From positions 1 to 64,000 of the forward strand of contig WRKT01000008.1 of assembly GCA_009777995.1 (NCBI GenBank): 64,000 bases of DNA. The letters run 5' to 3'. Origin of the DNA: Treponema sp. GTDB taxonomy: Bacteria; Spirochaetota; Spirochaetia; Treponematales; Breznakiellaceae. How positions within the stretch are numbered: the first letter of the stretch is position 1; the number at the start of each line of letters is the position of its first letter. Made by a program: the position numbers and the translations under genes. The notes beneath the pieces are model-generated. The model was given only the letters and a program-made list of their open reading frames with translations, did no database searches and had not been told where the DNA came from. Positions 48,368 through 60,130 of this stretch are shown in pieces.

Positions 48368-49162
48368 ATGTCATCAAACGAAAAGCTGTTAATTGAAAAG
48401 TACTCAGGCCTTATTGAAGAGCAGAGGGGCAATGCTTCAAGAGCATTTGCCTTGGAGTTTCATTATACAAAAAAGGTTTTAAATAATTATGTCGATAAAA
48501 ATTCGACGATAATAGAAGTCGGGTGCGGCACCGGTTATTATGGACTATACCTTTCAGAGTTATGCAAGGAATATACCGGGGTTGATCTGATTAAGGAGAA
48601 TATCGAGCTGTTTAACAGCAAAATAAGTGATAATAAAATTTTGAACTGTAAGGCACTTGTGGGGGACGCAACAAACCTTGTAAATATAGATAATGAAGTA
48701 TTTGATCTTGTCCTTGTATCGGGGCCAATGTATCACCTGCCCGGAGCAGAGAGGGACTTGGTTTTCGAAGAAGCAAAAAGAATCTGCAAGAAAAACGGTA
48801 TAATTATTTTCACCTATCAAAACAGGCTAGGTGTTTATTTACAAGCCTGTATCCTAAGTAACCCCGATGAATACCCGAACGAAACTGCAAACAATTTCTT
48901 CCTTGAAAAATCCACAAGCGACAAATCCCCCGGCCTATTCTTTTTCACAAGCCCCGAAGAAATGAAATCGCAGGCAAAAAAGCATAAATTAAGAATACTC
49001 AAAAATGTCGGAGTAAAGTATTACTTTAACAGTAAGTTAATAGACAACATGGACGATCCAAAGTATAAGTGCTGGATGGATTTCCTCGATCATCTCTGCG
49101 AAAGCGAATCCGGCGCAGGCCTCAGCGTCCAGGCCCTGCTTGTCTGCCGGAGGGAGGAGTGA
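48368..49162 (+). CDS. SAM-dependent methyltransferase (class I)
   Basis: The Rossmann signature [12 protein letters not shown] is followed by Y-T-G-V-D-L-I and [11 protein letters not shown], the class I small-molecule methyltransferase pattern. The substrate is unknown. It lies two bases before the hsdM ATG, so it could be expressed with the restriction-modification operon, but nothing in the sequence shows DNA as a target. GGGAG precedes the ATG. Confidence 0.85.
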
Positions 49163-49163
49163 T

Positions 49164-50711
49164 ATGGCTAAATCAAAAGGAGCGAAAATCGATTCATCTG
49201 CATCAATTGAGAAACTGCTCTGGAAATCTGCCGATAAGCTAAGAAAAAATATAGACGCTGCAGAATATAAACATGTTGTCCTTGGTCTAATATTTTTAAG
49301 ATACATTTCTGATGCCTTTGAAGACCTTTATGCAAAGTTAAAGAGCGGGAAAGGGGAATATGCAGGAGCAGACCCTGAGGATAAAGACGAGTATAAAGCG
49401 GAAAATATTTTCTTTGTTCCAAAGGTTGCTCGCTGGTCATACCTACAATCCATGGCAAAATTACCCACCATTGGTAAAGTTGTCGATGATGCCATGGATG
49501 CCATTGAGAAGGATAATCCATCGCTTAGGGATGTATTACCCAAAGTATTTGCCAGGGGCAATTTGGACCCTGCTAACCTTGGCGGGTTAATCGACCTTAT
49601 AGGGAATATTGCCCTTGGGGATGCGAAAGATCGAAGTGCTGATGTACTTGGCCATGTATTTGAGTATTTCCTTGGAGAGTTCGCCCTTGCCGAAGGTAAA
49701 AAAGGCGGTCAATTCTATACCCCGCGAAGTGTTGTAGAACTTTTAGTAGAAATACTTATGCCATACAAGGGCCGTATATTCGATCCCTGCTGCGGTTCAG
49801 GCGGTATGTTCGTACAGTCTGAAAAGTTTGTGACCGCCCACAAGGGTAAAATAAATGATATAAGCATCTATGGACAGGAAAGCAATCAGACCACTTGGCG
49901 ACTTGCGAAAATGAATCTTGCAATCCGCAGTATCGACAGCTCCCAGGTCAAGTGGAACAACGAAGGCTCATTTTTAAATGATGCTCATAAAGACCTTAAG
50001 GCCGATTTTGTTATTGCTAACCCTCCCTTTAATGACAGCGACTGGTCGGGGGATCTTCTCCGGAATGACGGCAGGTGGAAACACGGTGCTCCTCCTGCGG
50101 GAAATGCAAACTATGCGTGGATTCAGCACTTCCTTTACCATCTAAGCCCAGGCGGCATTGCCGGCTTTGTTCTTGCAAAAGGCTCGCTGACTTCAAAGAC
50201 ATCCGGTGAAGGTGATATACGCAAGGCATTGATCGAGGCTCATCTTGTTGATTGTATTGTCAATCTTCCGGCTAAGCTCTTTTTGAATACCCAAATACCT
50301 GCATGCCTCTGGTTCCTGTCTCGCAATAAGTCCAACGGTAATTATAGAAATAGGACTGAAGAGATATTGTTTATAGACGCACGAAACGAAGGCCATCTGA
50401 TTAATCGCAGAACCAGGGAATTATCAAGTGATGATATTCAAAAAATCGCCTCGACATACCATGAATGGCGAAAAAGCAAAGGAAAATACGAGGATATAAA
50501 AGGTTTTTGCGCCTCTGTAAACATTGAGCGTGTAAAGGAACTGGATTATGTGCTTACACCCGGCAGGTATGTAGGTCTCCCTGACGAAGAGGATGACTTT
50601 GATTTCAAAGAGCGGTTCAATAGCTTGAAGGCAGAGTTCGAGGAACAGTTGAAGGAGGAAGCAAGGCTGAATAAGGCTATACTGGAAAATCTTAAAAAGG
50701 TGAAAGTATGA
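49164..50711 (+). CDS. hsdM: type I restriction-modification DNA methyltransferase subunit HsdM
   Basis: The 515-residue protein has the HsdM N-terminal helical domain (L-W-K-S-A-D-K-L-R), the SAM loop [11 protein letters not shown] and the catalytic N-P-P-F from residue 286, which mark N6-adenine methylation. It forms an M2S complex with HsdS and, with HsdR, the restricting enzyme. GGAGGAG precedes the ATG at 49164. Its stop overlaps the DUF1016 gene by 4 bases (A-T-G-A), so the island is one operon from here. Confidence 0.95.
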
Positions 50712-51832
50712 GGAAAAGTACGAAAAACGATTATTCCGATATAATACAGCGTATAAAGGATGCCATACTTAAAAGCCGTTATCGTGCGGCATCTTTAGCA
50801 AATAAAGAATTATTATCTCTATACTACGGAATTGGTAGATATATTTCTGTAAACAGTCGGGAAGGGGTTTGGGGAACGAGTGCTATTGCTACCATATCTG
50901 AGAAACTACAACAAGAATTACCCGGTTTGCGTGGTTTTTCGGCATCTAATATAAAAAACATGAGATTGTTTTATGAAGAATGGGAGGAGTTCTTCACAAT
51001 TCGCCGGCCGTTAGCCGGCGAATTAAGAACCCAATCGAAAGATATTGATATAGAAGTATTAACAGCATATCGCCAGCCGGTGGCTGGCGATTTAAAACCA
51101 GTAGAAATTGAATTATTTTTTATTATTGGTTTTACCCATCATTGCGAAATCCTTTCTAAGATAAAAACTTTTGAAGAGCGATTTTTCTATATTGGGCTCT
51201 GTGCTACTGAGTTTTGGAGTAAAGAAAAGTTGCGTTATAATTTGAAAAGTAATCTATACGCACAAAAAGGAAAAATATCTAATAATTTTAAGGCAACTAT
51301 ATCTGACAAAGATTTAAGGCGAAAAGCCCTGTTATCGTTTAAAGATGAATACCTGCTTGATTACATTAATATTGAATCACCCGATGACGAGCCGGATGAA
51401 CGCGTCTTGGAAAGCGAAATTGTTAATAATATTAAGAAATTCATTATGTCACTCGGCAATGATTTTTCCTTTATTGGCAATCAATATAGGTTAGTTGTAG
51501 AAGAGCAGGAATACTTTATAGATTTGCTTTTTTTTAACCGACAGTTACAAGCATTGATAGCTATAGAACTAAAACGAGGTAAATTTAAACCTGAATATTT
51601 TGGGAAGATGAATTTCTACTTATCTATACTTGATGATTTGGTGAGGCTTCCGCATGAGAACCCGTCTATTGGTATTATTTTATGTAAATCAAAAAGTCAC
51701 CGTGTTGTAGAATATGCTTTCCGTGACATGAAAAAGCCAATGGGAGTTGCTACCTATAAAACGGCATCAAAACTACCACCTGAATATAGAAATATACTTC
51801 CAAACGCGGAACAACTTAAGGAGTTGCTTTGA
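50708..51832 (+). CDS. DUF1016 (YhcG-type) PD-(D/E)XK nuclease-fold protein
   Basis: The N-terminal DUF1016_N helical domain ([12 protein letters not shown] and [10 protein letters not shown]) is followed by a C-terminal nuclease-like domain with F-I-D-L-L-F-F and A-I-E-L-K-R-G, the PD-(D/E)XK core, and F-G-K-M-N-F-Y-L. Proteins of this family are often found in or near type I RM loci. The linker between the domains (residues ~97-130) is odd: two near-repeated peptides, R-R-P-L-A-G-E-L and Y-R-Q-P-V-A-G-D-L, are coded by perfect DNA hairpins. A 4-base overlap couples it to hsdM. Confidence 0.88.
50998..51024. repeat. perfect hairpin inside the DUF1016 gene, copy 1
   Basis: AATTCGCCGGC pairs with GCCGGCGAATT across the loop CGTTA, an 11-bp perfect stem inside coding sequence. 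It encodes the R-R-P-L-A-G-E linker peptide and is related to the second hairpin 45 bases downstream. Confidence 0.8.
51069..51091. repeat. perfect hairpin inside the DUF1016 gene, copy 2
   Basis: ATCGCCAGCC pairs with GGCTGGCGAT across the loop GGT, a 10-bp perfect stem. The core CGCC(G/A)GC is shared with the first hairpin. It encodes the R-Q-P-V-A-G-D linker peptide. Confidence 0.8.
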
Positions 51833-51955: not shown

Positions 51956-52024
51956 AAGTATTAATGGAGTAGCATATTAGGAAATTTATCGCACAAAATC
52001 TCCATGACACAAAGAGGGGGAATT

Positions 52025-52555
52025 TTGATATTAGACGAAACAGAACTAATTAGTAAAGGTCACGGAAAATGGTCAGAAAAAGGCGTTCCTCACAAAGGTT
52101 GGATATGTATAGATATTGAGGATACAGGAGAATTATCATCAGTATGTGAAATGTGTGAGAAACAGCTAATAAGGTATAAGCATTATATGAAACATTCAGA
52201 TTATCAGAAAGTTCTTAAAGTTGGATGCGTTTGCGCTGGTAATATGGAAGATAATTTGGTGTCAGCAAGAAGGCGTGACGATTTCATGAAGTCACGGAGT
52301 AATAAACGAAAAAAATGGCTAAATAGAAACTGGAAGAGATCTGCTAAGGGTAATGATTATTTAAAGTCTGATGGATATTTAGTTGTTATGATGGACAAGA
52401 ATGCTTTTTGGAGTGCTTTAATTCAAAGTGATGATAAGACATTTGTGAAATGGAGTCAACGTAAATATAAAACTATAAATGAAGCAAAATTAGCTGCATT
52501 TGATTATTTGACTAAAATATTATCAGAAAATCAATATTATGGGAAAGGAGTGTAA
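52025..52555 (+). CDS. small Cys-rich protein of unknown function inside the hsd island
   Basis: The protein has paired cysteines, C-E-M-C and G-C-V-C, about 28 residues apart, likely a zinc site, with R-Y-K-H-Y-M-K-H-S-D-Y between them. A basic stretch follows (R-K-K-W-L-N-R-N-W-K-R-S-A-K-G-N). The pattern recalls an unnamed bacterial family I cannot place by function. GAGGGGG lies 4 bases before a TTG at 52025, a better start than the ATG at 52004, which lacks a ribosome site. It ends two bases before the hsdS ATG. It could bind nucleic acid, but this is inference. Confidence 0.6.
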   Translation: MILDETELISKGHGKWSEKGVPHKGWICIDIEDTGELSSVCEMCEKQLIRYKHYMKHSDYQKVLKVGCVCAGNMEDNLVSARRRDDFMKSRSNKRKKWLNRNWKRSAKGNDYLKSDGYLVVMMDKNAFWSALIQSDDKTFVKWSQRKYKTINEAKLAAFDYLTKILSENQYYGKGV

Positions 52556-52556
52556 A

Positions 52557-53726
52557 ATGAATGAGTGGCGGGAAGCTATCCTTGACGATATTGCGTCAGT
52601 AAATCCACCAGAGTTCTTAAAAAGAGGTGAAGCGGCAAAGAAAATCGCTATGGAATGCTTAAAACCGTTTATCAAAAAAATCAATGAATTTTCTATTGAA
52701 CCTTTTAATGGAGGTATGAAATTTAGAAATGGTGATACTATTATTGCCAGAATTACTCCGTGTTTAGAAAATGGCAAGACCGCTTATGTTGATATTCTCG
52801 ATCCAGACGAAATAGGTTTCGGCTCAACTGAATATATTGTATTAAGAGAAAAGAATGGCTTAAGCGATAAGCATTTTTTATATTACTATGCAATTTCCCC
52901 AGAATTTCGCGATGTAGCTATTCTTTCAATGACAGGAAGCTCTGGGCGTCAACGTGTAGAAACAAGTGTTATTAAGAACCATATTCTCTTTGTTCCCCCT
53001 CTCCTCGAACAGAAGGCTATTGCCAGAGTACTTTTCAGCTTAGATGATAAGATAGATCTACTTGACCGCCAGAACAAGACCCTTGAGGCTATGGCGGAGA
53101 CCTTGTTTCGGCAATGGTTTGTAGAGGAAGCTGATGAGGGGTGGGAGGAAGGAAAGCTTCCAGATGAATTTTCCTTCATAATGGGTCAATCTCCTGTTGG
53201 TACTTCATTCAATTAAAATAAAATTGGTATTCCAATGTTTCAAGGAAATGCTGATTTTGGCTTTCGTTTCCCTTCTGAAAGAGTATATACTACTGAGCCC
53301 ACTCGGTTTGCTGATCAATTTGATACACTTGTAAGTGTTCGGGCACCTGTTGGAGAGCAAAATATGGCTTTGGTAAAATGTTGTATTGGTCGTGGCGTTG
53401 CTTCCTTTCGATACAAGCACAACAGAGATTATTATACATATACGTATTTTAAGATCCGTTCGTTATTAATGGAAATAAGGCAATATAACGATGAAGGTAC
53501 AGTCTTTGGTTCTATTGGAAAAGCTGATTTTGAATCATTGGATATAGATATTCCACCACAGGATTTGATACATAATTTTGAAAGAGTAGCAAAACCGATT
53601 AATGATAAAATTATAGAGAATTGTGGTCAAATCCGCACCCTTGAAAAACTTCGCGATTCCCTCTTGCCTAAGCTGATGAGTGGAGAAGTGATTTTAGAAG
53701 GATATAATCATGAATACAGATTTTGA
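52557..53726 (+). pseudogene. hsdS: type I specificity subunit HsdS gene with in-frame stop
   Basis: The first 220 codons cover target-recognition domain 1 (E-W-R-E-A-I-L-D-D-I to the G-S-S-G-R-Q-R-V-E segment) and the central conserved helices (L-D-D-K-I-D-L-L-D-R-Q-N-K-T-L-E). The second recognition domain begins G-Q-S-P-V-G-T-S-F-N and is cut by TAA at 53214-53216. The same frame then resumes N-K-I-G-I-P-M-F-Q-G-N-A-D-F-G-F and runs to the terminal conserved helix (T-L-E-K-L-R-D-S-L-L-P-K-L-M-S-G-E) and stop at 53726. No frameshift is needed; one base change from a sense codon such as GAA would explain it. The 5' half (TRD1 plus spacer) could still work as a half-subunit dimer. AAAGGAG precedes the ATG. 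Confidence 0.88.
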
Positions 53727-56133
53727 AAAAAAACTTACTAAATCTATTATTTACGGGCAACTAGAAAAAAAATGTACTGAAAATTCTCAGCATGAAGTTT
53801 TAACCCTTGTATCAGAGGTAGGTAGTTTTGCAGTCATGCGTTTAAAAACAGTTATCAAAAATATGCCAGAATTCACATTGCACGATGATGTTCATATTTT
53901 CAATATGCTTGGGATTTTGGAAAAAATTATTCCAGCATCTAGTTTGATAAAATTGTCTATTCCAGATTTGCTTATGTTAATTCTTTCGGTGTTTTTACAT
54001 GATATTGGTATGGCTCCAGATGAAAAATACATAAAAGCTTGGAAAAATCAACTTCTAGACAATGAATATGATGAAGAGTTACAGAAAGAGAAAGAAAATT
54101 TTGTCCGTTTCCGTTTAACATTTACACATCAATTGTCTGATATTAAACGATTTAATGCAGAAAGCGAATATTCAAAAGCGCAGCTTCTTGAAGATTATAT
54201 TATTACTGAATATATAAGAACAACTCACTCAACACGTGCAAGGAAAATAATTGCAACTTATTGGGATAGAAGAATTATGTATCAAGATACAGATTTAACT
54301 GAGGATTTAGCTGCGATATGTTTTAGTCACAATGAAAATTATACTTACTTACTCAACATGGAAACATTCAAAGTTTGTGGTCAAGATACATACCTTTGCC
54401 TTCCTTTCATAGCTACATTATTAAGATTAGTTGATATTATAGATTTTGATCCTAAACGAACACCCCCGGTTCTGTTTTCGCATTTAGCTGTTAAAAATCC
54501 AGTTTCACTTACTGAATGGAGAAAACATCAAAGTATAAAGGCGTGGACAATATCATCGAAAAAATTGGTTTTTTCTGCACAATGTGAGCATCCAGCAATA
54601 GAGGCTGCAATACGATTAGTTTGCGATCAAATTGATGAAGAGTTGAGGAATGGAACAATAGTATTATCAAATTTATCAAATGAAGGCATGGATATTGACG
54701 AAACTATTTATAGAATACCATTACCACCTCGGGTAGATAGACAAAAAATACAAGCTAAAAAAGATATATCTACTGGAAAGCCAATCTATCGTTATAACAA
54801 TACAAAATTTACATTAAACAAGAAGCAAATAATAGACTTACTAATGGGAACAAAACTATATGGAAAACCAGATGTCGCTTTACGTGAATTGTTGCAAAAC
54901 TCCATAGATGCCTGCTTATTAAGAAAAAAGCTTTCAGAGATATGGGGTGTCGAATATAATCCGAAAATTAAAGTTTTACTATATAGAAGGAATAATATTG
55001 ATTATATGCAAGTGAGCGATAATGGAATAGGAATGAATCAGCACATAGTAGATAATTACTATACGAATGTTGGTTGCTCTTACTATTCATCACGAGAGTT
55101 TAATGAACTTATAACTTCGTTTAAGTCTACATTTGTTCCTATTTCTAGATTTGGTATTGGCATACTATCATGTTTTATGGTAAGCGATTCTATGGAAGTT
55201 ATAACGAGGAGAATAACCGGGCGTTTTGAATGTGATAATGCTTTAAATATATTAATTGAGGGACTAGAAAGTCTATTCGTAATATCTGACTCTAACAAAG
55301 AAGAACCAGGAACAGATACGATATTAACATTAAGACAAGTACATCCTTGGGAAAGAATGAATGAAAATGAATTTGTAGATTGCATTAGAACTATTATACC
55401 TAATCCAGCTGTATTAATTGACATAGAAACAGATAAAGGAAGTGTTATTCATTCGAGTGATTATTTTGAAGGTATGGATTTAAAACCTATGCTAGATTAT
55501 TCATGGCATAATGAAAAAAATATTAGAAAGCTTGACATAGATTTAGAATGCGAAGAATATGGCTTTAAGGGCAAGGGTTGTGTTGGCATTCTTGTTAATA
55601 ATGAAGTTCCTGTGGATGTAATTGAAGTGTTATCAAGAGATGTTAGAATAGATGAAGAAACATACACATTATCGTCTAATATTAAATATGGAATTAACTG
55701 CATCTCTGAAAATTCGACGAGCATTTCTGTTGACACTAATGGTAATATTGATACAGATACCTCTTTTACGGAGAAATTTAGATCAAAATCTTCATTGTCT
55801 ATACATGGAATTGAAGTACCTTGTGATTTATTTTACAATTATACTAATAGGCAGTCAAAAACAATTATTGAAATGCCATTTCCATTTTCTTTTAGACTTG
55901 ATATTGGACAACACAGCGAACTAAATTTAAATACAGCAAGAAACCAGATTGTTTATGATGAAAAGTGGTTGCTTTTTGAAGAAAATTTATATCGAATAAT
56001 TTGCAAACAACTCGTATCTATTCTTAGTCCATCTGACTGGGGATTATTAAAGAATATAATCGGGAAAAATAAAGATAGTGTATTCAATAAAATTGCCCAA
56101 CAATTTCAGGACAATGAAACAGTTATATTTTAA
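53710..56133 (+). CDS. HD phosphohydrolase-like plus GHKL (Hsp90-type) ATPase protein, candidate defence protein
   Basis: The 807-residue protein has two recognisable parts. An HD-like domain (residues ~30-260) shows H58-D-D, F-L-H97-D98-I-G-M, T-H173-S-T-R, S-H207-N-E-N and L-V-D242, an H...HD...H...H...D pattern. A GHKL ATPase domain (~370-500) has the N-box R-E-L-L-Q-N397-S-I-D400-A, G1 D-N-G-I-G-M (437-442) and G2 F-G-I-G-I-L-S (481-487), as in HtpG or MutL. A ~300-residue C-terminal region is unassigned. No membrane segment is present. It overlaps the hsdS end by 17 bases and has AGAAGGA before its ATG. It is visibly more A/T-rich than the housekeeping genes. A role in phage defence is inferred from context only. 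Confidence 0.82.
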   Translation: MNTDFEKKLTKSIIYGQLEKKCTENSQHEVLTLVSEVGSFAVMRLKTVIKNMPEFTLHDDVHIFNMLGILEKIIPASSLIKLSIPDLLMLILSVFLHDIGMAPDEKYIKAWKNQLLDNEYDEELQKEKENFVRFRLTFTHQLSDIKRFNAESEYSKAQLLEDYIITEYIRTTHSTRARKIIATYWDRRIMYQDTDLTEDLAAICFSHNENYTYLLNMETFKVCGQDTYLCLPFIATLLRLVDIIDFDPKRTPPVLFSHLAVKNPVSLTEWRKHQSIKAWTISSKKLVFSAQCEHPAIEAAIRLVCDQIDEELRNGTIVLSNLSNEGMDIDETIYRIPLPPRVDRQKIQAKKDISTGKPIYRYNNTKFTLNKKQIIDLLMGTKLYGKPDVALRELLQNSIDACLLRKKLSEIWGVEYNPKIKVLLYRRNNIDYMQVSDNGIGMNQHIVDNYYTNVGCSYYSSREFNELITSFKSTFVPISRFGIGILSCFMVSDSMEVITRRITGRFECDNALNILIEGLESLFVISDSNKEEPGTDTILTLRQVHPWERMNENEFVDCIRTIIPNPAVLIDIETDKGSVIHSSDYFEGMDLKPMLDYSWHNEKNIRKLDIDLECEEYGFKGKGCVGILVNNEVPVDVIEVLSRDVRIDEETYTLSSNIKYGINCISENSTSISVDTNGNIDTDTSFTEKFRSKSSLSIHGIEVPCDLFYNYTNRQSKTIIEMPFPFSFRLDIGQHSELNLNTARNQIVYDEKWLLFEENLYRIICKQLVSILSPSDWGLLKNIIGKNKDSVFNKIAQQFQDNETVIF

Positions 56134-56135
56134 TT

Positions 56136-56234
56136 GTGCCTATTATAGATTTAAGCCAAATCAGCACCCTCAAAAAACTCCGCAATACCCTCTTGCCAAA
56201 ACTCATGAGTGGTGAAGAGAGGGTTGAGGTATAA
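56136..56234 (+). pseudogene. remnant of an hsdS 3' end, duplicate of the hsdS C-terminus
   Basis: Starting right after the HD-GHKL stop, one frame reads V-P-I-I-D-L-S-Q-I-S-T-L-K-K-L-R-N and continues T-L-L-P-K-L-M-S-G-E-E-R-V-E-V before TAA at 56232-56234. This aligns with the intact end at 53625-53726 (Q-I-R-T-L-E-K-L-R-D-S-L-L-P-K-L-M-S-G-E). DNA identity over ~60 bases is high but with mostly third-position differences, so the copies are diverged homologues and not a recent duplication. No start codon or upstream hsdS part is attached. Confidence 0.85.
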
Positions 56235-56745
56235 GTTTATCATTTTTCAATCTTTTTTCATAGCCATTATAATCATTAAAATCTGTTGACTTTACAAAGA
56301 TATCAAGAGCTTCTCCTACAAAAATTTTTTGTGCGATGTTATAATCAAATTTATGCTCAGCTACTTCAATTAGCCATGGGAATGTCCTTAGGTATTTTAG
56401 CAGAGCGATACCGGCGGCGGTTGGTGAGGAATTTCTGCTTTTCCACTTTGTTAAAGTACGCTGGGGTAGACCTACAGCCCTTTCAATCCCGGCAAAATTA
56501 ATTTTTCTTTCCTCAAAATATTTTAAAACTTCATCAATATAAGCTTCATTAAGGGTAGAGAGGGCTTTTTCAATTACTTTATCATTTTCACCGGAAATGT
56601 CTCCTTTAAAATCACATTCCATACATTTATCATAAAAGATATCTATGCTCAAATTTTTACTCAAATCACCGCTTATAGTTTCATTCTGCATAAAATGTTC
56701 AATTTTATCTGATCCGCATGAAGGGCATAACTTTCTTTCATCCAT
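56203..56745 (-). CDS. zinc-ribbon/HTH regulator, MqsA-antitoxin-like
   Basis: Near the N-terminus are C-P-S-C and, ~35 residues on, C-M-E-C, a zinc ribbon as in MqsA-type antitoxins. A helix-turn-helix follows (F-A-G-I-E-R-A-V-G-L-P-Q-R-T-L-T-K-W-K-S-R), then a ~60-residue tail without known function. It should be a DNA-binding repressor. No toxin gene is adjacent, so the likely targets are its own promoter and hsdR, which starts divergently 142 bases away. The ATG at 56745 is preferred; an ATG at 56781 would cross its own -10 box. Its last ~10 codons lie antisense on the hsdS remnant, so its original end may have been replaced. Confidence 0.75.
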   Translation of the reverse strand: MDERKLCPSCGSDKIEHFMQNETISGDLSKNLSIDIFYDKCMECDFKGDISGENDKVIEKALSTLNEAYIDEVLKYFEERKINFAGIERAVGLPQRTLTKWKSRNSSPTAAGIALLKYLRTFPWLIEVAEHKFDYNIAQKIFVGEALDIFVKSTDFNDYNGYEKRLKNDKLIPQPSLHHS

Positions 56746-56887: not shown

Positions 56888-59800
56888 ATGACTATTAAAC
56901 TCAACGAATCAGCCATAGAAACCTATGCTATAGAACTCCTTGAAAAACAAGGTTATAAATACATCTACGGTCCCGATATCGCCGCAGACGGTGACAATCC
57001 TGAACGCTCCTCCTTTGAAGACATCTTGCTAATAGATCGCCTTAAAACAGCAGTCACCCGCATAAATCCCACCATTCCCATCGATGCACGGGAAGATGCC
57101 ATAAGGCAAGTCCAACGCCTTACATCACCTGATCTCATAGCCAACAACGAAGTCTTTCACCGTATGCTCACAGAGGGTATTAATGTCAGCTATCAAAAAA
57201 ACGGAAACAACCGCGGAGATTTAGTCTGGCTGATTGACTTTGATATGCCAAATAACAACGACTTTATTGTCCTTAATCAATACACCGTAGTAGAAAATAA
57301 TGTAAATAAACGCCTGGATGTGGTCTTGTTTATCAACGGATTGCCCATTGTTATTATGGAACTAAAGAATCCTACAGATGAAAACGCTACTGTAAAGACA
57401 GCATTTAACCAAGTACAAACTTATAAACAGGCCATTCCATCTATTTTTAACTACAATGCATTTATAGTTATTTCAGATGGCCTTGAGGCTAAAGCAGGTA
57501 CAATTTCCTCCGGTCTTAGTCGTTTTATGACATGGAAGAGTTCAGACGGTAAAGTTGTCGCATCTGCCCTAGAGGGAGAATTGGAAACGCTTATTCACGG
57601 AATGTTGAATAAAGATACACTCTTAGACCTTATTCGCCATTTCATTGTCTTTGAAAAAAGCAAAAAAGAAGACAAAGAAACAGGTATCATAACCATTCAA
57701 ACCGAAAAAAAGTTGGCGGCTTATCATCAGTACTATGCAGTTAATCGAGCAGTAGAATCAACACTTCGTGCCGCAGGATATGTGGATGGAGATAGAGACC
57801 AAGCGCCATATACAACTGCAGAAATTGCAGCCGAATCTCCTGAAAGTTATGGTTTATATGGTGTCAAATCTCAGCCTGCAGGTGATAAGAAGGGAGGCGT
57901 AATATGGCATACTCAAGGCTCAGGAAAATCCCTATCCATGGTTTTTTATACCGGAAAGATAGTTCTGTGTATGAACAACCCGACAATTCTTGTTATAACC
58001 GACCGGAATGACCTCGATGATCAGCTTTTCGATACATTTGCCGCATCTCGGCAATTACTTCGCCAGGAACCTGTGCAAGCAGAAAATAGGGAGCAATTAA
58101 AGGATTTACTGAAAGTTGCTTCCGGAGGCATTGTTTTTTCTACAATTCAGAAGTTCCAGCCCGAAGAAGGCAATGTCTATGAAAAACTTTCGGATAGGAC
58201 AAATATCATTGTCATTGCGGATGAGGCTCATAGAACCCAGTATGGGTTTAGGGCAAAGATAATTGATGATAAGGACGAGTCCGGTAACATTATAGGAAAA
58301 AAGATTGTATATGGTTTTGCCAAGTACATGCGTGATGCACTTCCTAATGCAACATATCTAGGGTTTACAGGGACTCCTATTGAAAGCACTGATGTTAATA
58401 CACCCGCTGTTTTCGGTAACTATGTCGATGTATATGATATTGCTCAAGCTGTTACAGATGGAGCTACTGTCCGAATTTTCTATGAAAGTCGTCTTGCAAA
58501 GATCATATTGAGCAATGAAGGCAAAAAACTTGTAAAGGAACTTGATGAAGAGTTGGCACAGGATGAGCTGACAGAAACACAAAAAGCCAAGGCAAAGTGG
58601 ACACAGCTGGAAGCCTTAATCGGAAGTGCTGACAGGATAAAGCAGCTTGCAAAAGATATAATTAGCCATTTTGAACAGAGACAGGAAGTGATGGATGGCA
58701 AAGCAATGGTCGTAGCAATGTCTCGTAGGATTGCTGCTGAACTCTATAAGGCAATCATTGATTTAAAACCTGAATGGCATAGTGACGATCTGAAGAAAGG
58801 CACTGTCAAGGTAGTTATGACTTCTGCTTCTTCGGATGGACCTGAAATTTCAAAGCATCACACAACTAAAGAACAACGGCGTGCATTAGCAGATAGAATG
58901 AAAAATTCAGAAGATGAACTTAAAATGGTCATTGTCAGAGATATGTGGCTGACAGGGTTTGATGTCCCACATCTTCATACCCTTTACATTGATAAGCCCA
59001 TGCAAGGTCACAATTTGATGCAGGCAATTGCACGTGTAAACAGGGTATACAAAGACAAATCAGGCGGCCTAGTGGTTGATTATCTAGGAATTGCTTCAGA
59101 TTTGAAGAGAGCCCTATCTTTCTATTCCGATGCAGGTGGGAAAGGAGACCCTGCTTATAATCAGGAACAAGCAGTGCTGCTAATGCAAGAAAAACTTGAA
59201 GTTGTTTCTCAAATGTTCTATGGTTTTGCATATGAGCAGTATTTTTCGGCTGATACAGGTAAAAAATTATCGCTAATTCTTGCAGCAGAAGACCACATTC
59301 TTGGCTTAGAAAATGGAAAAAAGCGTTTTGTTGATGAAGTGAGCGCCCTATCTCAGGCTTTTTCAATAGCAATACCTCACGAACAAGCGATGGATGTAAA
59401 AGATACTATTGCTTTCCTTCAGGCAGTAAAATCAAGGCTTGTAAAATTTGACAGTACCGGCATAGGCAAAACCGATGAAGAAATTGAAACAGCTATTAAA
59501 CAGGTAATAGACAAGGCCTTGGTTACCGAGCAGGTAATCGATGTTTTTGATGCTGCCGGTATTAAAAAACCTGATATCTCTGTACTATCAGAAGAGTTTC
59601 TTCTTGAAGTTAAAAACATGGAGCATAAAAACATTGCTCTTGAAGTTCTAAAAAAACTTCTGGATGATGAAATAAAATCGCGAACTAAGAGAAACCTAAT
59701 CCAGAGTAAAACCTTAATGGAAATGCTTGAAAATTCCATTAAAAAATACCACAACAAGATAATTACCGCAGCAGAAGTAATAGAAGAGCTTATTGAATTA

Positions 59801-60130
59801 TCAAAAGAAATTCATGAAATGGACAAAGAACCCAAAGAAATGAACCTAACCGATTATGAATATGCTTTTTATACTGCTATTGCCAACAATGACAGTGCAA
59901 AACAGCTAATGCAGAAAGATCAGCTTCGTGAGCTTGCTATTGTTCTTTACGAAAAAGTTAAGGAAAATGCCTCTATTGACTGGACTATAAAAGAGAGCGT
60001 AAAAGCAAAACTAAAGGTCATAGTTAAAAGAATCTTACGGCAATATGGTTATCCGCCCGATATGCAAGCACTCGCAACTGAAACGGTATTAAAGCAGGCA
60101 GAATTAATAGCCGAGGAGCTAACAAAGTAA
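56888..60130 (+). CDS. hsdR: type I restriction enzyme subunit HsdR
   Basis: The 1080-residue protein has the N-terminal nuclease core with Asp144 and Glu158-Leu-Lys160 (D...E-x-K), then a superfamily 2 helicase/translocase with Walker A G-S-G-K-S (~344-348), D445-E-A-H448 and late motifs G-F-D-V-P-H and M-Q-A-I-A-R-V-N-R. The C-terminal ~250 residues are helical and bind the methyltransferase core. No stop or frameshift is seen, so the motor and nuclease appear intact even though hsdS is broken. It has its own upstream region shared with the divergent HTH regulator. Confidence 0.95.
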   Translation: MTIKLNESAIETYAIELLEKQGYKYIYGPDIAADGDNPERSSFEDILLIDRLKTAVTRINPTIPIDAREDAIRQVQRLTSPDLIANNEVFHRMLTEGINVSYQKNGNNRGDLVWLIDFDMPNNNDFIVLNQYTVVENNVNKRLDVVLFINGLPIVIMELKNPTDENATVKTAFNQVQTYKQAIPSIFNYNAFIVISDGLEAKAGTISSGLSRFMTWKSSDGKVVASALEGELETLIHGMLNKDTLLDLIRHFIVFEKSKKEDKETGIITIQTEKKLAAYHQYYAVNRAVESTLRAAGYVDGDRDQAPYTTAEIAAESPESYGLYGVKSQPAGDKKGGVIWHTQGSGKSLSMVFYTGKIVLCMNNPTILVITDRNDLDDQLFDTFAASRQLLRQEPVQAENREQLKDLLKVASGGIVFSTIQKFQPEEGNVYEKLSDRTNIIVIADEAHRTQYGFRAKIIDDKDESGNIIGKKIVYGFAKYMRDALPNATYLGFTGTPIESTDVNTPAVFGNYVDVYDIAQAVTDGATVRIFYESRLAKIILSNEGKKLVKELDEELAQDELTETQKAKAKWTQLEALIGSADRIKQLAKDIISHFEQRQEVMDGKAMVVAMSRRIAAELYKAIIDLKPEWHSDDLKKGTVKVVMTSASSDGPEISKHHTTKEQRRALADRMKNSEDELKMVIVRDMWLTGFDVPHLHTLYIDKPMQGHNLMQAIARVNRVYKDKSGGLVVDYLGIASDLKRALSFYSDAGGKGDPAYNQEQAVLLMQEKLEVVSQMFYGFAYEQYFSADTGKKLSLILAAEDHILGLENGKKRFVDEVSALSQAFSIAIPHEQAMDVKDTIAFLQAVKSRLVKFDSTGIGKTDEEIETAIKQVIDKALVTEQVIDVFDAAGIKKPDISVLSEEFLLEVKNMEHKNIALEVLKKLLDDEIKSRTKRNLIQSKTLMEMLENSIKKYHNKIITAAEVIEELIELSKEIHEMDKEPKEMNLTDYEYAFYTAIANNDSAKQLMQKDQLRELAIVLYEKVKENASIDWTIKESVKAKLKVIVKRILRQYGYPPDMQALATETVLKQAELIAEELTK

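What the first reader, a model, noticed from the sequence alone, without database searches (positions are those of the whole stretch)
53710..56133. HD plus GHKL-ATPase protein embedded in a type I restriction-modification operon
An 807-residue protein with an HD-type hydrolase pattern (H58, H97-D98, H173, H207, D242) and an Hsp90/MutL-type ATPase (N397, D400, D-N-G-I-G-M, F-G-I-G) is placed between hsdS and hsdR, overlapping the hsdS end by 17 bases. Seen: motifs, order and overlap. Known: both domain types occur in bacterial conflict proteins, and type I loci often carry extra defence genes. Inferred: an ATP-gated HD enzyme that acts on nucleotides or nucleic acid when phage is sensed, working beside or as back-up to the RM complex.
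Basis: partly seen in the sequence, partly recalled or inferred. Interest (0 to 1): 0.85.

Follow-up and report, generated by a model that had tools for sequence, protein, structure and literature searches.

The report
ATP-gated HD enzyme riding restriction locus
Inside a bacterial DNA-restriction operon sits a foreign gene for an enzyme with a predicted phosphate-bond-cutting head and an Hsp90-type ATP motor; the same gene moves as a single piece next to many different anti-phage systems, which suggests a plug-in second line of defence that has not been tested.

Summary
Window 53710-56133 (+) encodes 807 aa: an HD-CE domain (Pfam PF24391, E=1.6e-54, residues 52-314) followed by an Hsp90-type ATPase (N-terminal plus middle domain, VIA-align Z 28 to TRAP1). 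The predicted metal ligands and ATPase motifs, including middle-domain R744, are invariant in 51 homologues. It overlaps hsdS by 17 bases and lies before hsdR.

It is not a conserved part of type I restriction. Of 69 homologous loci only two others lie at type I RM. The commonest neighbour is an SMC/OLD/RloC-like ABC ATPase (24 loci within 300 bp); others sit at type III RM, BREX, ZacABC, AbiE, Avs2 or Z1 genes. Some pairs of loci share only this gene (up to 96% DNA identity) with unrelated flanks. In the window a duplicated hsdS 3' end (77 nt) brackets it, and the same interval holds Septu, IetAS, other cargo or nothing in relatives. It is a horizontally acquired, defence-associated cargo gene.

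Most likely function: an ATP-gated HD phosphohydrolase effector acting as back-up or guard, as PrrC does in EcoprrI. Activity, substrate and trigger are inferred, not shown. No description was found in the open papers searched; PADLOC 2023 has no full-length model.

The parts
53710..56133 (+). HD-CE + Hsp90-type GHKL ATPase protein, 807 aa (the finding)
53863..54651 (+). HD-CE domain, residues 52-314; predicted metal ligands H58/H62, H97-D98, H173, H207, D242
   Evidence: Pfam PF24391 E=1.6e-54; genome scan gives the same span; invariant columns
54793..55455 (+). Hsp90-type N-terminal ATPase domain, about residues 362-582 (E393, N397, D400, DNGIGM 437-442, FGIG 481-484)
   Evidence: fold match to Hsp90 N-domains, model residues about 360-582; HMM alignment to HtpG
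55456..56115 (+). Hsp90-type middle domain, about residues 583-802; R744 matches the conserved Arg of HtpG 'LNVSREI'
   Evidence: TRAP1 N+M domain match, Z 28.4, 325 residues, model 368-790; weak second HMM segment
53628..53704 (+). hsdS 3' end, copy 1, directly in front of the HD gene
   Evidence: the repeat finder, 77 nt, 78% identical to copy 2
56157..56233 (+). hsdS 3' end, copy 2, behind the HD gene; reads '..QISTLKKLRNTLLPKLMSGEERVEV*' in frame, stop codon ends at 56235
   Evidence: the single hsdS end of L141 matches both copies
49140..50711 (+). hsdM, type I methyltransferase
   Evidence: Pfam N6_Mtase 3.3e-110, HsdM_N
50708..51832 (+). YhcG/DUF1016 PDDEXK nuclease-like gene, overlaps hsdM (PADLOC PDC-S02)
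52004..52555 (+). 183-aa protein of unknown function, overlaps hsdS
   Evidence: no significant family
52539..53726 (+). hsdS, interrupted by in-frame TAA at 53214-53216 (open pieces 52539-53216 and 53235-53726)
   Evidence: Methylase_S in both pieces; Glu at this site in L141
56203..56781 (-). MqsA-like zinc-finger/HTH ORF between the HD gene and hsdR (weak match)
   Evidence: NCBIfam TIGR03830 E=1.4e-4, below cut-off
56888..60130 (+). hsdR, type I restriction subunit
   Evidence: HSDR_N, SWI2_SNF2, T1RH-like_C

Best explanation
It is a horizontally acquired anti-phage cargo gene lodged in the variable hsdS-hsdR interval of a type I RM operon. The N-terminal HD-CE domain is the effector: a metal-dependent phosphohydrolase or phosphodiesterase acting on nucleotides or nucleic acid. 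The C-terminal Hsp90-type N+M module is the switch: ATP binding closes a dimer or clamp and, when a cue is met, turns the HD site on, so that the infected cell stops supporting the phage. In this locus the likeliest cue is a disturbed RM complex or its DNA products (a guard or back-up role as for PrrC in EcoprrI); elsewhere the cue would come from the partner, most often an SMC/OLD/RloC-like ABC ATPase. Shown by computation: domains, intact motifs, cargo mobility, defence association. Inferred: enzymatic activity, substrate, ATP gating, trigger and phage defence itself.
For: Domains and motifs: Pfam, 51-sequence invariants, AF2 pLDDT 86, Hsp90 N+M match Z 28, R744 aligned to the HtpG arginine motif; HD part pLDDT 86 with VIA-align Z about 12 to PPX/GppA HD domains and cyclic-nucleotide phosphodiesterases. 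Defence link: ORFs within 300 bp of 69 homologues match AAA_21 in 17/74 versus 2/74 length-matched distal ORFs, Fisher p=3e-4; type III RM mod-HD-res with overlaps (L060), BREX PglX/BrxHI/PglZ (L085), ZacABC (L052) and Avs2 (L048), AbiEii (L053), Z1 (L106), Avs2-like 327 bp upstream (L153). Cargo: L052/L067 share 2505 bp at 96.2% and nothing else; similar exact boundaries in L084/L088, L075/L107, L078/L114; window homology to Clostridia starts 12 bp before the ATG; hsdS-end duplication; GC 0.309 against 0.428 for the window; tree places it inside Bacillota. The slot holds Septu, IetAS, PDC-S11, PDC-S15 or nothing in relatives. Precedents: PrrC embedded in EcoprrI (PMC3874165), GHKL domain proposed to gate a nuclease in VcSduA (PMC12137116).
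Against: No activity, phage or toxicity data exist. About half of the homologous loci show no recognised partner, so a partner is not obligatory or was missed. hsdS here carries a stop codon while the HD gene is intact, so an intact HsdS is apparently not needed to keep it harmless (unless the half-HsdS works or the stop is an assembly error). Foldseek on the HD part alone gave no hit at E<=0.001, and its VIA Z of about 12 lies within the range warned of for helical proteins. Enrichment of ABC partners was measured against distal ORFs of the same, often defence-rich, loci.
Confidence: 0.55

Rival explanations
1. Independent defence gene that merely shares a cargo hotspot with the RM genes and has no functional contact with them.
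For: Variable slot with unrelated cargo; only 2 of 69 other loci are at hsd genes; precise gene cassette; acquired from Clostridia-like donors.
Against: Same strand and 17-base overlap with hsdS; repeated overlaps or tiny gaps with partner genes elsewhere, e.g. -39/-3 bp in the type III operon of L060 and 16-50 bp behind ABC ATPases, suggest coupled expression.
Confidence: 0.25
2. Specialised chaperone: the Hsp90-like module helps assemble or protect large defence complexes (HsdR, SMC-type ATPases, BREX helicases); the HD domain senses or trims a nucleotide.
For: Full Hsp90 N+M pair with catalytic residues; partners are large ATPases of unrelated families, which suits a general helper.
Against: No Hsp90 C-terminal dimerisation domain was matched; the genome has its own HtpG-like gene; HD ligands are invariant, as expected of an enzyme; many homologues stand alone; gene-precise exchange between unrelated loci.
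Confidence: 0.15
3. Functional subunit of the type I enzyme, or a regulator needed for restriction.
For: Position inside the operon.
Against: No Hsd-type domain; close hsd relatives lack it (L138-L143); nearly all homologues lie away from hsd genes.
Confidence: 0.05

Closest known systems
HD-CE (Pfam PF24391)
   Same: N-terminal domain is a full-length member (263/263 positions)
   Different: The family is named but no paper in the searched library describes it; here it is fused to an Hsp90 N+M module; in L046 the same kind of domain is followed by a P-loop NTPase, and the PADLOC RT_UG24 model also matches it
Hsp90/HtpG/TRAP1
   Same: N-terminal ATPase and middle domains with E393, N397, D400, G-loops and R744
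   Different: No C-terminal dimerisation domain matched; HD domain at the N terminus; a separate HtpG-like gene in the same genome
VcSduA, Shedu type I-D (PMC12137116)
   Same: GHKL ATPase fused to a predicted hydrolytic effector; works-like model of ATPase gating
   Different: Effector is PD-(D/E)XK (DUF4263), not HD; domain order reversed
PrrC (EcoprrI) and RloC
   Same: Accessory gene embedded in a type I RM locus; RloC, like this family, only sometimes at type I/III RM (8/73, PMC2610378); AAA_13 proteins are frequent neighbours here
   Different: PrrC/RloC are ABC ATPase anticodon nucleases; this protein has neither domain
BbrUII/HgiDII-type GHKL restriction enzymes
   Same: GHKL ATPase in a restriction context; weak NF050001 match E=2.7e-6 over residues 429-521
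   Different: Far below that family's cut-off (26 against 550 bits); different partner domain

Membership tests
HD-CE (PF24391) | Profile match above the curated cut-off over the whole domain | tested here: met
   185.8 bits against cut-off 27, positions 1-263/263
HD superfamily hydrolase | H...HD...D metal-binding signature conserved | tested here: met
   H58, H62, H97-D98, H173, H207, D242 invariant in 51 sequences
HD superfamily hydrolase | HD fold | tested here: inconclusive
   Model pLDDT 86; top VIA rows are HD-superfamily PPX/GppA and PDEs at Z about 12, but Foldseek E is above 0.001
HD superfamily hydrolase | Metal-dependent phosphohydrolase activity | not testable with these tools
   needs biochemistry
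GHKL / Hsp90-type ATPase | Nucleotide-binding motifs plus catalytic Glu and middle-domain Arg | tested here: met
   E393, N397, D400, D437-M442, FGIG 481-484, R744
Hsp90 chaperone | N, middle and C-terminal dimerisation domains | tested here: inconclusive
   N and M domains matched to residue 802 of 807; no match to a C-terminal domain was seen
Shedu type I-D | DUF4263 PD-(D/E)XK nuclease domain | tested here: not met
   No such Pfam or PADLOC match
PrrC/RloC | ABC ATPase plus anticodon-nuclease domain | tested here: not met
   No AAA_13/ABC match in P0001
PrrC/RloC | Gene embedded in a type I RM locus | tested here: met
   Window layout; rare in this protein's family at large
Type I RM subunit | HsdM, HsdR or HsdS domain | tested here: not met
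Anti-phage defence gene | Clustering of its homologues with defence genes | tested here: met
Anti-phage defence gene | Protects cells from phage | not testable with these tools
   needs phage assays

The most novel reading that the evidence does not exclude
One exchangeable, ATP-gated HD enzyme serves as a universal add-on effector or guard for many unrelated immune systems (type I and III RM, BREX, ZacABC, Avs, AbiE, OLD/RloC-like ATPases), moving between them as a precise one-gene cassette and firing when the host system is inhibited.
Probability: 0.25. Interest if true: 0.85.

Novelty: new variant of a known kind. Interest (0 to 1): 0.58.

Why it matters
If true, bacteria share one plug-in second line of defence across otherwise unrelated immune systems, and the Hsp90 ATPase cycle has been used as an immune switch. 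It would give a single protein family in which to test how an Hsp90-type clamp gates an enzyme, and would explain part of the varied cargo between hsdS and hsdR.

Tried and rejected
A single-sequence scan of genome contigs found nothing usable; an alignment query solved this. A protein search of the window's order is dominated by HtpG, so HD-CE was used instead; weak HD-CE hits there with open frames around 510 aa look like ordinary HD proteins and were set aside. Considered and rejected: subunit of the RM enzyme; housekeeping Hsp90; Shedu; PrrC/RloC homologue. Literature search for HD-CE returned only unrelated papers; searches for HD+Hsp90 defence proteins gave no description of this fusion, but most subscription journals are not held. 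A tRNA end on the L052/L067 cassette was suspected from a T-arm-like sequence; ARAGORN finds no tRNA. Foldseek found no solved structure matching the HD part at E<=0.001. A first count of ABC neighbours by phmmer used references taken from the neighbours themselves and is therefore biased; the Pfam comparison with matched distal ORFs is the one relied on.

Full report
OBSERVATION. The open frame 53710-56133 (+) encodes 807 residues and starts 17 bases before the end of the hsdS frame. Pfam assigns residues 52-314 to HD-CE (PF24391, E=1.6e-54, all 263 profile positions) and residues 388-502 to HATPase_c_3 (E=1.3e-6); the best NCBIfam partial matches are Hsp90/HtpG, and the PDB sequences matched are Hsp90 N-domains. 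In 51 homologues (the others 23-73% identical to it), H58, D59, H62, H97, D98, R170, H173, H207, R239, D242 and the ATPase residues E393, N397, D400, D437, G439, G441, G482, G484 and R744 are invariant.

STRUCTURE. AlphaFold2 on the 51-row alignment gives mean pLDDT 86. Residues 368-790 match the N-terminal plus middle domains of human TRAP1 (4z1i, VIA Z 28.4, rmsd 3.8, 325 residues); the top rows are all Hsp90. The profile aligns 'lnsaRteI' around R744 with HtpG 'LNVSREI' (that segment scores weakly on its own), the middle-domain arginine known (own knowledge) to help ATP hydrolysis in Hsp90. The match stops at the middle domain; no C-terminal dimerisation domain was matched. The HD part folded alone has pLDDT 86; the best VIA rows are the HD domains of PPX/GppA and cyclic-nucleotide phosphodiesterases, Z about 12, with Foldseek E above 0.001. 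The sequence profile also aligns H..H..HD with PDE9 at E=0.02. This is suggestive of a phosphohydrolase or phosphodiesterase, not proof.

NEIGHBOURHOOD IN THE WINDOW. Order: hsdM, a YhcG-type PDDEXK gene overlapping hsdM, an unknown 183-aa gene, hsdS, the HD gene, an opposite-strand MqsA-like ORF, hsdR. hsdS has an in-frame TAA at 53214-53216, where the relative L141 has Glu in an otherwise very similar second half; this may be a real nonsense change or an assembly error. A 77-nt stretch of the hsdS 3' end (53628-53704) is repeated at 78% identity right after the HD gene (56157-56233), reads in frame and ends in a stop. In L141, a relative without comparable cargo between hsdS and hsdR, one hsdS end matches both copies. 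The simplest reading is that the HD gene arrived by recombination at the hsdS end, leaving the old hsdS tail behind it. Its GC is 0.309 against 0.428 for the window.

VARIABLE SLOT. Close relatives of this hsd system in the same order (HsdR 68-85% identical) hold different genes between hsdS and hsdR: Septu PtuA/PtuB (L138), IetAS (L143), other genes (L140, L142) or nothing of 100 aa or more (L141); more distant ones hold PDC-S11 (L145), PDC-S15 (L146) or a helicase (L148). The interval is a cargo site, and the HD protein is one guest.

HOMOLOGUES. A pattern scan with tblastn confirmation gave 79 loci in genomes and 12 in viral contigs. The closest (73-74%) are in Clostridia. The tree puts the window protein inside a Bacillota clade with full support, although the genome appears to be a spirochaete (L045, from a genome of the same class, and L101, titled Spirochaetae bacterium, come from contigs of the same length, 96,475 bases, and both begin inside the homologue; inference). 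DNA similarity to those Clostridia loci begins at 53698, 12 bases before the ATG, and does not extend into their flanks. Even more telling, L052 and L067 share a 2,505-bp block at 96.2% DNA identity, just the gene and its edges, with unrelated flanks (ZacABC and KAP genes in one, an AAA_13 ATPase in the other); L084/L088, L075/L107 and L078/L114 show the same gene-precise boundaries, while L064/L098 and L084/L087 share a two-gene ATPase+HD block. L098 has this pair inside an hsd operon between hsdM and hsdS, with its HD gene frameshifted.

PARTNERS. ORFs of at least 150 aa within 300 bp of 69 homologues (74 ORFs) were compared with 74 length-matched ORFs more than 4 kb away in the same loci. 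AAA_21: 17 against 2 (Fisher p=3e-4); SMC_N: 16 against 3; AAA_23: 15 against at most 2; AAA_13 and AAA_15: 10 each against at most 2. These are SMC/OLD/RloC-like ABC ATPases of several unrelated subfamilies; all ten upstream genes first sent to Pfam were of this kind, and counting matches by profile and phmmer gives 24 of 69 loci. The phmmer references came from the same neighbours, so the Pfam comparison is the unbiased one. Other partners: type III RM mod-HD-res with overlapping genes (L060); BREX PglX, BrxHI, PglZ (L085), ZacABC (L052), Avs2 and HsdS (L048); AbiEii at 47 bp (L053); Z1 (L106); nSTAND3-Mrr in a more distant relative (L116); Avs2-like 327 bp upstream in a further Clostridia sample (L153). 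Type I RM accounts for the window, L048 and L098 only. HD-CE at E<=1e-15 was found in 10 of 397 genomes of the family of L064 and 18 of 226 of the order of L050, so the domain is widespread but sparse.

MECHANISM. The repeated pairing of one intact HD enzyme with different sensors, and of HD-CE with other modules (a P-loop NTPase in L046; a match of the PADLOC RT_UG24 model), argues that HD-CE is the effector and the Hsp90-type module the switch. For the window, position and overlap with hsdS recall PrrC, a latent anticodon nuclease embedded in EcoprrI that is released when phage T4 infects (PMC3874165; PMC12707154). VcSduA is a recent precedent for a GHKL domain proposed to control a defence nuclease (PMC12137116). 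RloC offers a parallel for occurrence: 8 of 73 at type I/III RM (PMC2610378). Activity, substrate, gating and trigger are inferences. Against the strict guard model: hsdS is interrupted here while the HD gene is intact, and most homologues are not at RM loci; independence from RM therefore remains a serious rival.

NOVELTY. The domains are named in public libraries, but PADLOC 2023 has no model for the full-length protein and no paper in the searched open library was found to describe the fusion. Filed as a new variant of a known kind (GHKL-gated hydrolase effector; RM-embedded accessory gene).

Noticed in passing
window 53214-53216: In-frame TAA inside hsdS; the relative L141 has Glu at this site. 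Real nonsense change or assembly error.
   Followed up: partly
L138, L140-L143, L145, L146, L148: The hsdS-hsdR interval of related type I loci carries different cargo: Septu, IetAS, PDC-S11, PDC-S15, helicase, or nothing.
   Followed up: partly
L052 and L067, 9962-12466: Same HD gene at 96% DNA identity with unrelated flanks; its 3' edge holds a T-arm-like sequence, but no tRNA is found.
   Followed up: partly
L054 / L157: Three HD-CE-related genes close together (809, 874, 1298 aa) in one Clostridium locus.
   Followed up: no
L048, L095, L098: Homologues broken by frameshift or stop; in L095 and L098 just after the HD motif, which may hint at a cost of the active gene.
   Followed up: no
L046 6541-9993 (-): HD-CE domain followed by a P-loop NTPase (GYRGSGKTTL) instead of the Hsp90 module, 1151 aa.
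   Followed up: no
window 50708-51832: YhcG-type PDDEXK gene overlapping hsdM, a second accessory gene in the same operon (PADLOC PDC-S02).
   Followed up: no
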